A stretch of 64,000 nt of DNA from Tetradesmus obliquus (Eukaryota > Chlorophyta > Chlorophyceae > Sphaeropleales > Scenedesmaceae). A program made the position numbers and the translations under genes. The notes below the pieces were generated by a model. It was not told where the DNA came from and ran no database searches. It saw nothing but the letters and a program-made list of their open reading frames with translations. This document shows positions 347 through 62,600 of the stretch, piece by piece; positions within the stretch are counted from its first letter, which is position 1; every line of letters starts with the position of its first letter. Where the stretch lies: assembly GCA_030272155.1 (NCBI GenBank), contig CP126203.1, positions 2,232,001 through 2,296,000 on the forward strand, in the 5' to 3' direction.

Positions 347-2706
347 ATGCAGCGAATCGTTGCAATCCTGCTGCTTGGAGCGGCCCTGGTCGCTCAGGCC
401 AGCCCTGTTCCTGCCAAGCAGGTGCAGGACTTTGCTAAGAGCCACTCCAACAAAGGCAACGCCGTTGGCGTCGTTTCATGGACCGGCAAAGGAGCTGGAA
501 AGGAAGTCAAGCTGGGTGGGTGCTCATTGGCAGCCGCGCGCAGAATCATTATTAGTTGCATCTTGTATAAGCGCGATCGATCATTATCAGGATCCGGTCC
601 TCCGTGGACCTATCATGTGGGAGGTCGCAGAAAGCACATTCCACGGTGCCAGGTGCCACCGCCTACAAGGGAATTTTGTGATTGTTCTATGTTTACAATT
701 CACGATAGTGATTGATAAGGGCTGCGAGATGGCGTGGTGGGAAGATGCTGCTCATCATCGCACTCACCAGCAGCAGCAACCCCATCCTCACCACCACACG
801 TTCCTGCTGCTGCTTTCTGGCCTCCTGCAGCCGGCCTCGATGCTTACGTGGCCACCCCCAGCGGCCCGTTCAAGGCAGCTGTGCTGATGATCAGTGATGT
901 GTTCGGATGGAGGGTGGATGCCGCGCGCGTGTGGGCAGATAACATGGCCAAGCAGGTAGGGTCATTTGGGGCACCATGTGCTGCTCCCATATAGGGCCCA
1001 GCTGCAGTATTTTGTTCCTTTACATATGTTTTGCTGAGTTGTTGGTCCTGAGCAGTGCATATCCCATGCTGGCAGTGTGAACATGGCCAAAGAGCGCAGC
1101 TGCCAGTGCCGCATGCTGTTCACTGCTCACTGCTTGCTGCCCACTCTCATGCAATGCCAGTCACTGCTTTGCTTTTACGTTAATGCCTTCGCTAACTTGG
1201 ATGTACCTCAAGTCCCTTCTCCCTTGTTATGGCCGCTGCTGCTGCTGCTGCTGCCGCCGCAGGGCTTCCTGGTGGTGGTGCCGGACTACTTCAAGGGCGA
1301 GCCCCGCAAGAAGACCGACAGCCCAGACACCTTCGCAGCCTGGTGAGGGTGGAGGGTTTTGGTACATGGTGTGGGGTTTAAGTGATTGGGTGTTATGTTT
1401 TGACTAATTCAAGGGCGAGCCCCGCAAGCAGACCGACAGCCCAGACACCTTTGCAGCCTGGTGAGGAGCGAGGGTTTTGATGGTTAGGGGGGAGTGGGGT
1501 TTGATTGTAATGTTTTGATGGACTACTTCAAGGGCCGTGCCCGCAAGAAGACCAACCATTTTGACATCGTTGTAGCATGGTGAAAGCAGCAGCAGCAGCA
1601 GCAGGGCTGTGCCATTGGCGCAGCATGCAGCGACACATGTTGACACGCTGCTGTCAATCACCTTGTCAGCAGCACTTTTCATACCCAACATTGAAATCCT
1701 GTTCAAACGCTCTGTGTTGTCTGCAGGCGCGCCAAGTTTCCCCGCAAGACTGTCATGAAGCAGAGCACCGACATGATCGCAGCCATCAAAGCTGCCTACC
1801 CATCTGTGAAGAAGGTTGGAGTGGCAGGGTGAGCCACCTACGGCAGCAGCAGCAGCATCAGCAGCAAACGATACAGCAGATGTGCCTTCATATCAGCAGC
1901 TTCTTGGTTGCTCCTGCTCCTGAAACAGCCACCCTTGCATGTGTGGTGATGCATTCGTGTCTGCAGCTCTCGTGTGGTGCAGCTGCAGCTGCAGCTGCAG
2001 GTACCAGCTGACTGGACCGCCCTTCGTAGTATAACCCTGCCACCTGCCTGCTTGCTGCTGCTTTACCCCACACACAACTACCTCATCTTCCCCTGCGCAG
2101 CTTCTGCTGGGGCGGCCTCTACTCTGTGCTGCTGGCGGGCGGCAAGGCGCCAGCCGTCAACGCAGCAGTGGTGTATCACGGCAGCCTGCTGACCCGTGCT
2201 GATATCGAGGCCATCGCCGCACCCATCAACTTCCAGCAGGCCGACCCAGCGCTGGACAACCAGATCAAGACAGACTTTTACAAGGAGGTGCGGGCCTGCT
2301 GCTGCTGCTGCTGCTGCTGAGCCGAGTGCTGCTGCTGCTGCTGCTGCTGGGCTTAGAAATGGTGCTGGTTCTGGGCCACGTCTTACGTTGCTTGTTGCTG
2401 TCGACAAGTGCTGTATTGGGCGATATGGTGATGTGGATGTGCAACCTATCGTCATTCCTCCTAAAGCTGCCACCATCGCTGCTGCTGCTGCTGCTGCTGC
2501 TGCTGCTGCTGCTGCTGCTGCTGCTGCTGCTGCAGATCAAGGCCATCCTGGATGACAAGGCCAAGAAGGGCCTGGACGCCAGCATCACCTACTACCCCAA
2601 CATGCCCCACGGCTACTCCCTGCGCGGCGCAAACGCCACTGTCAGCGCCTCGGCCACCACGGCCTTCAGCTCTGGAGCAGCATTCTTCAAGAAGCACCTG
2701 AACTAA
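347..2706 (+). CDS. secreted dienelactone hydrolase-like protein (6 exons, 277 aa)
   Basis: Exons: 347-515, 831-955, 1263-1342, 1727-1828, 2101-2287, 2536-2706. Phases join without a break and total 834 nt. The start at 347 opens a typical signal peptide (MQRIVAILLLGAALVAQA), so the product probably enters the secretory pathway. The alpha/beta-hydrolase core follows. The nucleophile elbow GFCWGG puts Cys at residue 161; Asp207 (in FQQAD) and His246 (in PHGYS) complete the Cys-Asp-His triad, with spacing like that of bacterial carboxymethylenebutenolidase. Family members hydrolyse dienelactone-type esters or lactones; the substrate here is unknown. Length is close to the family's usual ~240 aa plus leader. 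Two decayed copies of the end of exon 3 sit in intron 3. The intron before the last exon is nearly filled with CTG repeats. The family call is firm; the substrate is not. Confidence 0.9.
1408..1581 (+). repeat. two donor-side echoes of hydrolase exon 3
   Basis: Copies of the 3' part of exon 3 plus its donor lie at 1408-1460 (ends CAGCCTG then gtgagg, almost identical to the real exon) and 1517-1581 (diverged, encoding a YFKGRARKKT-like stretch, ending in ATGGTGAAAG). Both lie inside the following intron. Neither is needed for an open reading frame. Confidence 0.8.
2477..2535 (+). repeat. (CTG)n tract forming a 3' splice acceptor
   Basis: About 19 CTG units run directly into the CTGCAG acceptor of the last hydrolase exon at 2536. 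The triplet repeat occupies the position of the polypyrimidine tract. Two shorter CTG runs lie upstream in the same intron (about 2297-2350). Confidence 0.9.
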
Positions 2707-2734
2707 ACCCAGCAAGCAACATCATCGAGGAACA

Positions 2735-59694: not shown

Positions 59695-62600
59695 ATGTCG
59701 ACACGGCGTTCTTCCCGCTCCAGGTGAGCTCAGCAGCGCTGGAAACATTTTGAGCGTCTTTCAGGGTTGGATTGCTCTGCCAAAGTCAGGTGGCCTGGCA
59801 GCAGCTCCCTGCAAAGTATATCACAGTTGGTGTTGTGCGGCTTGATCCGGCTCTACTGGCTATAGGCAAAATAATGTAATCCACTCTCCTTTCAATAGCT
59901 GATTGCATCTGATTGAAGCACTTGCTGTTGCCACTGCAACTGCTGCAGGGCCCAAAAAGTGCAGGCAGCACCACCTACTGCAGCCCCCTGCCTGTTAAAC
60001 AGCCCAGTGCTGCCAGTGCTGCTGCAGCACCCCTGCATGCGCCACGTCAGCATCATCTGCTCGCTGCTGTGCACAGCTAAAGCTCTAGAGCAGCCGATCG
60101 CACAGTACCTGCGAGGGCAGCTGGCAGTGCAGTGCAACGTGCAGCAGAAAGGGGCCGGCAGCTGCCAGCTGCGCAGTGACTTCTTAGACTGGCTCGCACA
60201 GCACGCATGCCTCGCCATGAGCCTGCAGCTGCAGCTGCACCCAGCCTACCAGGCCACCTGCAGCAGCCTCGCCGGCATTGCAGCAGCCCTCAAACTTGCA
60301 GGAAAGCAGCGATCAAGCTCAAGCAACGCAGCAGCAGCAGGAGGCCGGGGTCTGGCGCTGGTGTCTTTTGAGGCTCCTGCAAGCACTGTAGCATTACTGC
60401 AAGCGCTGCCGGCAGCAACCCTAACTCGGCTAGACCCTGGCACACTCGTCCATGCTGAGCTAGATGAGAGAATAACAGCATCTAGGAAGGCGCTGCAGCG
60501 GCTGACGAGCTTGCAGGAGCTTGTGCTGCACCAGGGTGATGCTAACACGCTGCTGCAGGCAACCTCAAAGCTGCTGCAGCTGCGGCGGCTGAGTGCGCAG
60601 CAGCTGTCTGCCGCTGGCGTTGGGGCCTTCAAGCACTTGCCGCCGCAGCTGCAGAGCTGCACGTTCACGGCTGACCTAAGCGGCGGCATGACTGGGTTGC
60701 CTGCAGAGGAGGTGAGCGGTGACACGCCGGCAGCAGCAGCAGCAGCAGCTCTGTGGTCTTGTGCGTGCGGAGGAGGTGAGGGCTGCTGATACACCGGCAG
60801 CAGCAGCAGCAGCAGCAGCTCTGTGGTCTTGTGCCTGCGGTGGAGGTGAGGGCTGCTGATACACCGGCAGCAGTAGCAGCAGCAGCAGCAGCAGCAGCTC
60901 TGTGGTCTTGTGCCTGCGGAGGAGGCGAGGGGTGACATGCTGGCAGCAGCAGCAGCGGCAGCAGTGGCAGCAGCACTGTGGTCTGTTGCACAGCGCATGT
61001 TGGGGCTGATATACTGGGTGCATCATGGCAGCAGCGAAGGCAGCTAGCACTGGCTGGTGATGCGTACATACATGCAGCACACCGCGCTGCAACATCAAGC
61101 ATCAAGCACAGTGTCAGACAAACCTTAGCAATGCCGACGGCTTGCCAGGTTGTGGCTCGCCTGCTGCTGCTGCTGTCCCCCGCAGGAGACAGATAGCCAC
61201 TCGCGCTGGGCCATGTGACTGGGCGCACTGAGCTGCTGCTGCTGCTGCTCCTCCTGCCGCCTGCAGGAGATGATGGCTGCAGTCGCGCTGGGCCACGTGA
61301 CTGGGCTGACTGAGCTGCTGCTGCTGCTGCTGCTGCTGCTGCTGTCGCTGCTGTCGCCTGCAGGAGACGATAGCCGCTGTCACGCTGGGGCACATAACTG
61401 GGCTGACTGAGCTGCGCTGTGAGCGCTACATGCTGGAGGGAACCACATTTGACCTGCAGCCAGGGTGCGTGTGGCCTTTGCTTGGAACGTTTACGCAAAA
61501 GCAACTGCTTGGGAACAGCAGGTCAGGCGGTGTTCAGGAAAGTTTGGGCACAGCGCAGACACACTGCAGGCACAGGCTGTTCAGCAATGCGTGGCAGCAG
61601 CGCGTTGCTGGCCACAGGTTGCCTGTCAGGCTGTGTCTGTCACAACTGCTGCTGCTGGTGCTGGTGCTGGTGCTGCTGCAACTATGTGGCGGCCTGCAGC
61701 CTGCGCCGCTTGATGCTGTCCAGTGTTACTGTAACCAACAGCTGGCAGATCTGACGAAGCTGCTGCTGCTGCCGCTGCCACTGCTGCTGCTGCTACTGCT
61801 GCTGCTGCTGCTGCTGCTGCTGCTGCTGCTGCTGCTGCTGCTGCTGCTGCTGCTGCTGCTGCTGCTGCTGCTGCTGCAGGGACATGGTTCCCCGCAGCCT
61901 GCGACGCCTGACGCTGTCCAGCGTGGAGAGCATCCAGCAGCTGGCGGATCTGAGCGCGCTGGAAACCTTGGAGCTGTGGTCGGCTGAGATCATGGCGTCC
62001 GAGGTTCTGCGCCAGATCAGCAGCTTGACACACATCACGCAGCTGCGGCTGGGGTACTTTCCGAGGACCCCTGAGCGGATCGAGGAGCATGCCAATGTTT
62101 GGCCGGATCTGCCAGCTTTGAAGGGCTTGGACATTCAATGGCATCTGTCCGAGGAGGTGATGCCGTCACTTGTGGTGTCGCAGCTGCAGCGCTGCACCGG
62201 CCTGACTCAGCTTGGCATAGAGATCGAGCACGAGGACAGCTGGATTGAGGGCACGGCTGCGCAGTTTGCGCAGGCGCTGGCGCAGCTGAAGCAGCTGCGG
62301 GAGCTGCGGCTGGCAGGATACGGCTTCACTTTTGAAGAAGAGGATGCAAGATTCCATCACATGAGTGACACGCAAGTGGTGCTTAGCAGCCTGGCTCAGC
62401 TGCCGGGGCTGCGCAGCTTAGCGCTGCTGCGGCTAGATCTGACAGATGACCGGGCGGTGCCAGCTGGCGCGACGATATTAGACGACCTGGGTTTACTGAC
62501 ACAGCTCAGTCGGCTCGAGCTGGAGTGTTGTGAGACCTGGTCCGAGCATGAGCTCTATCCCAGCTGCCTGTGCATGGCACTGCTGCAGCTGACGCGGCTG

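What the first reader, a model, noticed from the sequence alone, without database searches (positions are those of the whole stretch)
1263..61880. Exon-edge echoes: splice-junction segments tandemly repeated in introns of every large gene
In five unrelated genes on both strands, short segments spanning an exon/intron junction are tandemly repeated 2-7 times. The direction rule holds without exception in what I saw: acceptor-side copies lie upstream of the working exon, donor-side copies downstream. I count more than 20 arrays. Copies usually keep a working-looking AG or GT. Tandem duplication across a splice junction gives exactly this geometry, because the inner partial copy becomes intron. 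The density implies either an exceptional rate of 70-250-bp duplications with neutral loss, or use of arrays of competing splice sites as a regulatory layer. I know of no named description of such a pervasive pattern.
Basis: partly seen in the sequence, partly recalled or inferred. Interest (0 to 1): 0.9.

Follow-up and report, generated by a model that had tools for sequence, protein, structure and literature searches.

The report
Exon-edge copies littering an alga's introns
In this alga's genome, short stretches of about 117 bases that straddle exon ends have often been duplicated side by side, leaving apparently unused copies of exon edges, many with intact-looking splice sites, inside the neighbouring introns; the pattern is real, and it most likely reflects an unusual duplication habit that splicing tolerates rather than a control layer.

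Summary
In 24 random 10-kb stretches of the same genome, local direct repeats occur in 19, and the window's density is typical. Repeat pairs include exon plus intron more often than random placement gives (110 of 137 vs 73 expected). The direction rule fits 94 of 100 anchored single-junction pairs. Leaving every echo out of two genes gives uninterrupted exchanger and kinase frames.
Additions: spacing is bimodal, near 117 and 226 bp. Similarity drops at the splice motif: exon side ~91% identical, intron side ~68%, control ~52%. Echo splice sites look neutrally decayed, neither kept nor removed. Copies differ more at synonymous sites (dN/dS ~0.3) than simulated dead copies (0.5 or more), most clearly in the seven-copy array; faster synonymous mutation could explain much of this and is uncalibrated.
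Best reading: recurrent local tandem duplication, tolerated because splicing keeps the shortest exon; exchange with the working exon may refresh echoes. A regulatory role is not supported, but no RNA was available. A single similar case is published (PMC4974935).

The parts
35355..36710 (-). Seven-copy acceptor-side array in an SOS1-like Na+/H+ exchanger gene; the working copy is the last one (exon 35484-35262; its start was set by hand, the gene finder began at 35448)
   Evidence: working exon supported by collinearity with PF00999 and SOS1 structures
37262..38032 (-). Donor-side array, five copies of an exon tail; working exon 38119-37958, echoes downstream, two with a frame-shifting 2-nt insertion
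34986..35327 (-). Donor-side array, three copies; working exon ends at 35262
34214..34737 (-). Acceptor-side array of about five copies; working exon starts at 34272
31396..32258 (-). Array with 247-bp and 131-bp periods further 3' on the same strand; exon assignment uncertain
9752..10058 (+). Acceptor-side array (period 126) of a kinase-gene exon head; working exon 10007-10153
10092..10390 (+). Donor-side pair: exon tail plus 7 intron bases copied at 10322-10390, intron flanks not similar
10507..11129 (+). Acceptor-side array, four copies; working exon 11080-11351
11527..11983 (+). Acceptor-side array, three copies (period 151, CTG runs between units); working exon 11886-12117
12757..12967 (+). 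Acceptor-side pair; working exon 12912-13056
13019..13273 (+). Donor-side array, three copies (period 98); working exon ends at 13056; echoes keep AG and GT around 27 nt
6895..7656 (+). Three echo pairs: donor 6895/6986, acceptor 7138/7256 (100% over 41 nt), donor 7455/7577
8494..8944 (+). Acceptor-side array upstream of predicted exon 8894-9580
1284..1583 (+). Donor-side echo (period 118) of a predicted exon
20454..20729 (-). Acceptor-side echo (period 117); a nearby exon has a weak, sub-threshold subtilase match
22102..22751 (-). Array with several periods; holds two of the direction-rule exceptions, exon models uncertain
27759..28179 (-). Acceptor-side array, four copies (period 110); one echo has a 2-nt deletion, another a stop
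28547..28892 (-). Donor-side exon-tail copy (period 257); the gene finder also calls the echo an exon
50355..51106 (+). Donor-side (70 bp) and acceptor-side (84-118 bp) arrays in an LRR gene
60698..61419 (+). The same two arrays in the second copy of a ~10-kb tandem duplication; same units

Best explanation
These are by-products of recurrent local tandem duplication with a characteristic unit of about 117 bp (and about twice that). When a unit straddles a splice junction, the gene survives if splicing keeps the original exon: the last acceptor and the first donor, that is, the choice giving the shortest exon. The partial inner copy then becomes intron, which forces the direction rule. Echo and working sites can be nearly identical because exon-centred pairing of splice sites (exon definition) would favour the working site. 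Intron parts then diverge, while exon edge and splice motif stay recognisable because the working partner is constrained; exchange between copies, visible in the seven-copy array, may also refresh echoes. Shown: geometry, direction rule, spread in a random sample, unit size, drop of similarity at the junction. Inferred: the duplication mechanism, exon definition, non-use of echo sites, and how much exchange contributes. The concerted-maintenance rival below overlaps with this reading rather than excluding it.
For: Direction rule in 94 of 100 anchored pairs. Repeats in 19 of 24 random loci, 95 clusters in about 237 kb. Weak but real intron similarity on the correct side (~0.68 vs control ~0.52; mean local score 24.2 vs 13.7 for mismatched pairs). 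Spacing modes: 123 of 186 at 80-160 bp (mean 118, sd 18) and 46 of 186 at 180-280; two-component BIC 98 vs 134 for one; TRF gives 34 of 61 arrays of period 40 or more at 90-130 bp. Echo-free exon chains are open frames with exchanger and kinase matches. Echo AG kept in 38 of 41 and GT in 25 of 32, scores as for 7% random decay of the working site. Offsets not frame-preserving. Exchange between units: c2/c3 exons 1.6% but introns 33% different; c1/c2 introns 5.7% but exons 17% different. The arrays recur with the same units in both halves of a ~10-kb duplication.
Against: dN/dS among copies is lower than a dead-copy model allows: working-echo 0.29 [0.24-0.36], 0.32 [0.26-0.39] with the observed mutation spectrum, echo-echo 0.28-0.37, against 0.51-0.71 and 0.81-0.90 in simulation. 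Pairs 93-100% identical in the exon can have hardly similar intron flanks, more contrast than constraint on the working copy alone predicts. Both would soften if synonymous sites change faster than introns (1.78 times the intron-based expectation; 0.024 vs 0.013-0.020 on few changes), which I could not calibrate. Five of 24 random stretches have no cluster, which a uniform process does not predict. Gene models are my own ab initio calls; no transcripts were available.
Confidence: 0.7

Rival explanations
1. Concerted maintenance: old duplications whose exon edges are repeatedly rewritten by short gene-conversion tracts from the working exon, confined to the exon because only there homology remains. 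Intron parts decay freely, giving the sharp drop at the splice motif. (This can act on top of the best explanation.)
For: Identity step at the junction; ungapped donor identity 0.88-0.94 through +5 and 0.56 at +6, acceptor 0.95-0.98 through -3; near-identical exon edges with decayed introns; mosaic exon/intron similarity in the seven-copy array.
Against: The shared stretches are often only 40-80 bases, short for homologous exchange (general knowledge). Conversion from the working copy should give dN/dS near 0.5 (reasoning); the observed 0.3 and the seven-copy array are lower unless synonymous sites change faster.
Confidence: 0.3
2. Regulatory layer: arrays of competing splice sites tune splicing or make isoforms, and echoes are under selection.
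For: 63 of 73 tested echoes keep the canonical dinucleotide (the mapped working sites have it in 70 of 73); low dN/dS between copies.
Against: Retention and site scores fit random decay at about the nonsynonymous rate; offsets are spread over frames; some echoes carry stops or frameshifts (6 in-frame stops among the 98 intronic echo pairs; reading); c5 of the seven-copy array has lost its acceptor yet differs from the working copy by one amino acid.
Confidence: 0.08
3. Mutually exclusive or tandem exons, a known kind of alternative splicing.
For: Seven copies of one exchanger exon head with nearly the same amino acids and 20-58% synonymous difference in all pairs but one.
Against: 80 of 98 intronic echoes hold one junction only and 11 hold both; no plausible common donor in the seven-copy array on reading the sequence; no frame rule for offsets.
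Confidence: 0.05
4. Assembly artefact.
For: Arrays are tandem and repetitive, a context prone to misassembly.
Against: Adjacent copies differ widely (median identity 86%, 5% quantile 71%); the same arrays with the same units lie in both halves of a ~10-kb duplication. Raw reads were not available.
Confidence: 0.01

Closest known systems
Tandem duplication across an intron-exon boundary in a potato RdRp gene (PMC4974935; abstract and outline seen)
   Same: The duplicated segment crosses an intron-exon boundary; the inner, previously exonic piece becomes intron and splice signals are inherited.
   Different: There one event makes a new intron whose donor comes from the exonic piece; here about 400 repeat clusters per Mb of random sample (95 in 237 kb), most pairs holding exon plus intron, in arrays of up to seven, with a preferred unit size, apparently lengthening existing introns.
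Internal gene duplication and intron creation (Gao and Lynch 2009; recalled, not seen)
   Same: Within-gene duplications interacting with splicing, surveyed genome-wide (recalled).
   Different: I recall no exon-edge arrays with a direction rule there; not checked.
Tandem exon duplication / mutually exclusive exons (PMC9013439, PMC3236188; search listings only)
   Same: Tandem coding copies inside a gene, with mostly synonymous differences in some arrays.
   Different: Copies here are mostly partial, with one junction.
Small tandem duplications from break-end fill-in (PMC8355091; passages seen)
   Same: Short local tandem duplications as ordinary repair products.
   Different: The passages seen concern animal cells and speak of short insertions under 100 bp; a ~117-bp quantum in an alga is not described in them.
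Introners (PMC9860276; search listing only)
   Same: Many intron-linked insertions across a genome.
   Different: Echoes are copies of their own neighbouring exon; the one exon searched has no DNA match outside its own array.

Membership tests
Boundary-spanning tandem duplication | Duplicated unit contains both sides of a splice junction | tested here: met
   80 of 98 intronic echoes hold exactly one junction; residual intron similarity above control in 73 rule-following pairs
Boundary-spanning tandem duplication | Inner copy spliced out, original exon kept | tested here: inconclusive
   Echo-free exchanger and kinase chains are open and match their families, two genes only and part of each; no cDNA
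Intron gain by tandem duplication | A new intron position arises | not tested
   No related genome was at hand to polarise intron positions
Mutually exclusive exons | Copies carry both splice sites | tested here: not met
   11 of 98 intronic echoes hold both junctions; those 11 could still qualify
Mutually exclusive exons | Each copy is used in transcripts | not testable with these tools
   No RNA data
Introner elements | Same sequence inserted at many unlinked sites | tested here: not met
   Exchanger exon: all 7 DNA matches lie in its own array; one array tested
Repair-type small tandem duplication | Microhomology or fill-in scars at young breakpoints | not tested
   No breakpoint analysis was run
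CTG/CAG-driven repeat instability | Duplications sit at triplet runs more than expected | tested here: not met
   92 of 186 pairs have a run inside or within 40 nt, rotation null mean 91.2

The most novel reading that the evidence does not exclude
Echoes are not passive: short exon-edge cassettes plus splice motif are kept coding-like for long times by exchange with the working exon (or by selection acting through such exchange), so that a large share of this alga's exons carries a co-evolving spare edge in the adjacent intron, generated in ~117-bp quanta by a size-limited duplication machinery.
Probability: 0.25. Interest if true: 0.85.

Novelty: new variant of a known kind. Interest (0 to 1): 0.6.

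Why it matters
In this sample 135 of 429 predicted introns contain local repeats, and 147 of 186 repeat pairs include exon plus intron, often with intact-looking splice sites on both copies. That is a natural large-scale test of how the spliceosome chooses between near-identical sites. If the working site is nearly always the one giving the shorter exon, this argues for exon-centred recognition in a green alga, whereas intron definition has been proposed for Volvox and Chlamydomonas (PMC4378016, passages seen). The size quantum points to a specific duplication process, and the arrays may record exon history.

Tried and rejected
Triplet runs as driver: not enriched. Selection on echo splice sites: none seen (the dinucleotide and score part was wrong because minus-strand genes were not complemented, its position-wise identities stand). 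Mutually exclusive exons for the seven-copy array: no donor seen, one acceptor lost. Dispersed source: no DNA match elsewhere for the one exon searched. Indirect selection on echoes because they could overwrite the working exon: considered; at the observed synonymous divergence the implied exchange rate seems too low (reasoning only). Simulations were flawed (the first unit could never be lost); one search replaces them. It assumes equal mutability of all sites. Gene-finder attempts were discarded (23 read a wrong sequence, 24 drifted to tiny exons); one search is used. Calibration of synonymous against intron rate on the ~10-kb duplication was inconclusive (13 synonymous changes). A search with one LRR exon found only the two copies in the window.

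Rows dropped: of 186 adjacent pairs, 146 had at least 18 aligned coding columns and entered; 98 of these had the echo in predicted intron; 73 of these have one junction and follow the direction rule and were used, so the rule-breakers are not in those profiles. Pairs with both copies coding (18) gave dN/dS 0.26. Splitting single-junction pairs by how much of the period aligns gave 0.23 [0.16-0.31] for 18 full and 0.28 [0.21-0.36] for 62 partial ones.

Literature searches: (open-licence PMC library only, top rows listed). No title or abstract opening in those lists described a pervasive exon-edge array pattern. I saw the abstract and outline of PMC4974935 and passages of PMC5966456, PMC4378016 and PMC8355091; other papers named were seen only as listings or are marked recalled.
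Full report
Setting. The window is G000:C13:2232001-2296000 of a 104.66-Mb genome in 17 contigs. G+C is mostly 52-60% per 2 kb, and CTG/CAG runs cover 4.8% of the sampled sequence. Published figures for Tetradesmus obliquus are similar (57% G+C, mean intron 462 bp, 7.8 introns per gene; PMC5966456, passages seen), so a Scenedesmus-like alga is likely, but I did not prove the species. 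I fetched 25 random 10-kb stretches; one was fully masked and one partly, so 24 plus the window were used. Gene models come from an HMM gene finder that I trained on this DNA (consensus CAG|GTGAG and TGCAG|G; median exon 109, median intron 256 in the final models). There were no transcripts.

Is it there? Yes. Self-alignment with offsets up to 1.5 kb finds repeat clusters in 19 of 24 random stretches (0 to 10 per stretch, 95 in all) and 32 in the window, 5.0 per 10 kb, so the window is typical. Of 137 adjacent pairs in random stretches, 110 contain exon and intron against 73 under rotation, 25 are intron-only against 50, 2 exon-only against 6.5, 0 intergenic against 7.4; in the window 37, 7, 4 and 1 of 49 against 23, 12.8, 4.4 and 8.8. 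The gene finder can call exon-like copies as exons, and exon parts remain recognisable longer, so part of this excess is ascertainment.

Direction. Among 98 pairs whose echo lies in predicted intron, 80 hold exactly one junction and 73 of these follow the rule (41 acceptor-side upstream, 32 donor-side downstream); 11 hold both junctions and 7 none. Among all single-junction pairs, requiring the working exon to continue beyond the repeat, 94 of 100 fit (72 of 76 random, 22 of 24 window); of 12 unanchored pairs 4 fit.

Working copies in two genes. Joining only working exons gives a 319-residue open frame that matches Na_H_Exchanger along its whole length (profile 74-366 of 375, E 1.9e-40) and aligns collinearly with SOS1-type exchangers of known structure (best E 3.6e-51). 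One exon start (35484, after AAG) was set by hand. The kinase gene gives a 591-residue open frame; in the 324-residue part searched, the best PK_Tyr_Ser-Thr stretch covers residues 124-317 (E 1e-47), so the first echo-bearing exons lie outside the best stretch and rest on the open frame and on reading. No echo is needed in either gene.

Unit size. Spacing between adjacent copies is bimodal: 123 of 186 lie at 80-160 bp (mean 118, sd 18) and 46 at 180-280 (median 230); two lognormal components fit better than one (BIC 98 vs 134; means 116 and 225). Acceptor, donor and non-coding pairs share the main mode. TRF finds 34 of its 61 arrays with period 40 or more at 90-130 bp, apart from 70 arrays of period under 40. 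Spacing correlates moderately with exon-part length (rho 0.45, 54 pairs). I read this as a duplication process with an intrinsic length; which process is unknown.

Where similarity stops. In many pairs of 92% identity or more the copies share the exon edge plus a few intron bases, with flanks that look unrelated. Anchored at the junction with gaps allowed, 73 rule-following pairs are 91-92% identical in the first 12 exon bases, 85% in the first 6 intron bases, then 71% falling to about 62%, while mismatched controls give 50-55%. Without gaps, donor identity is 0.88-0.94 through +5 and 0.56 at +6; acceptor 0.95-0.98 through -3, 0.73-0.80 to -6, then 0.56. The residual intron similarity indicates that intron was duplicated too.

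Do echoes matter? Echo AG is kept in 38 of 41 and GT in 25 of 32 (the mapped working sites: 40 of 41 and 30 of 32). Mean site scores of echoes (acceptor core 3.74, donor 3.60) match working sites randomly decayed at 7% (3.67 and 3.62), close to the nonsynonymous divergence of 0.072. Offsets are spread over frames (64/67/55). So there is no sign that echo sites are kept for use, or removed; a weak effect cannot be excluded with these numbers.

The anomaly. Between copies, synonymous differences are in excess: working-echo dN/dS 0.29 [0.24-0.36], 0.32 [0.26-0.39] with the intron-derived spectrum, echo-echo 0.28 [0.22-0.41], or 0.37 [0.31-0.52] without the seven-copy array (comparisons within arrays are not independent). 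Simulated dead echoes, with or without unequal exchange, give 0.51-0.71 and 0.81-0.90 (equal mutability assumed). The seven-copy array is extreme: c4 vs c5 show 11 synonymous and 0 nonsynonymous differences with introns 35% different; minimal changes over seven copies and 37 codons are 27 synonymous and 9 nonsynonymous, P 6e-5 for a nonsynonymous share of 0.58 and 0.011 for 0.45. Against this, synonymous change is 1.78 times and nonsynonymous change 0.57 times the intron-based expectation, the latter close to the 0.5 expected for a dead echo beside a constrained exon; so faster synonymous change would remove most of the general anomaly. The ~10-kb duplication gives 0.024 synonymous (13 changes), 0.012 nonsynonymous, 0.013 intron, 0.019 intergenic, too few to decide. 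Exchange between units is visible in the seven-copy array: c2/c3 share exons (1.6% different) but not introns (33%), c1/c2 the reverse (17% and 5.7%).

Age. In the two halves of the ~10-kb duplication (about 2% apart by substitution), the two LRR-gene arrays have the same units; differences are triplet-run lengths, two other small indels and scattered substitutions. These arrays are therefore older than that duplication.

Mechanism. Most likely: local tandem duplication of ~117-bp units; survival when splicing keeps the shortest exon; slow loss. Known break-repair routes make small tandem duplications (PMC8355091, passages), but I ran no breakpoint analysis. The rule 'last acceptor, first donor' with near-identical competitors is what exon definition would deliver; this is inference, and it differs from the intron definition proposed for Volvox and Chlamydomonas (PMC4378016, passages).

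Known or new. A single potato gene shows a tandem duplication across an intron-exon boundary (PMC4974935, abstract). In the nine searches listed in Tried and rejected I saw no description of a genome-wide pattern; that library holds open-licence papers only.

Noticed in passing
42981-52636 and 53561-62996: A roughly 10-kb segment is present twice in tandem, with aligned pieces 96.5-98% identical, carrying an LRR gene with its echo arrays.
   Followed up: partly
random loci L026, L027, L028, L029, L032: Five of 24 random 10-kb stretches have no local repeat cluster although the mean is about 4; the process looks unevenly spread.
   Followed up: no
L022:7302-7373 and 7544-7615: Two identical 72-bp copies 242 bp apart with inverted ends (TGTAAA...TTTACA), perhaps a small mobile element rather than an echo.
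   Followed up: no
46613-47097 and 56992-57452: Repeats of 24-36 bp that read as proline-serine-glutamate rich on the + strand and as a long glycine-rich open frame on the - strand.
   Followed up: no
32980-33157: A 178-bp CA-rich short-period repeat between predicted exons of the exchanger gene region.
   Followed up: no
29303-29969: Array of a ~96-121-bp unit next to an open frame with the phrase GVEPTTSRLTAVRSNQLSYGG; apparently not an exon echo.
   Followed up: no
13128-13154 and 13226-13252: 27-nt echo segments in the kinase gene that keep both AG and GT, candidate micro-exons worth checking in cDNA.
   Followed up: no
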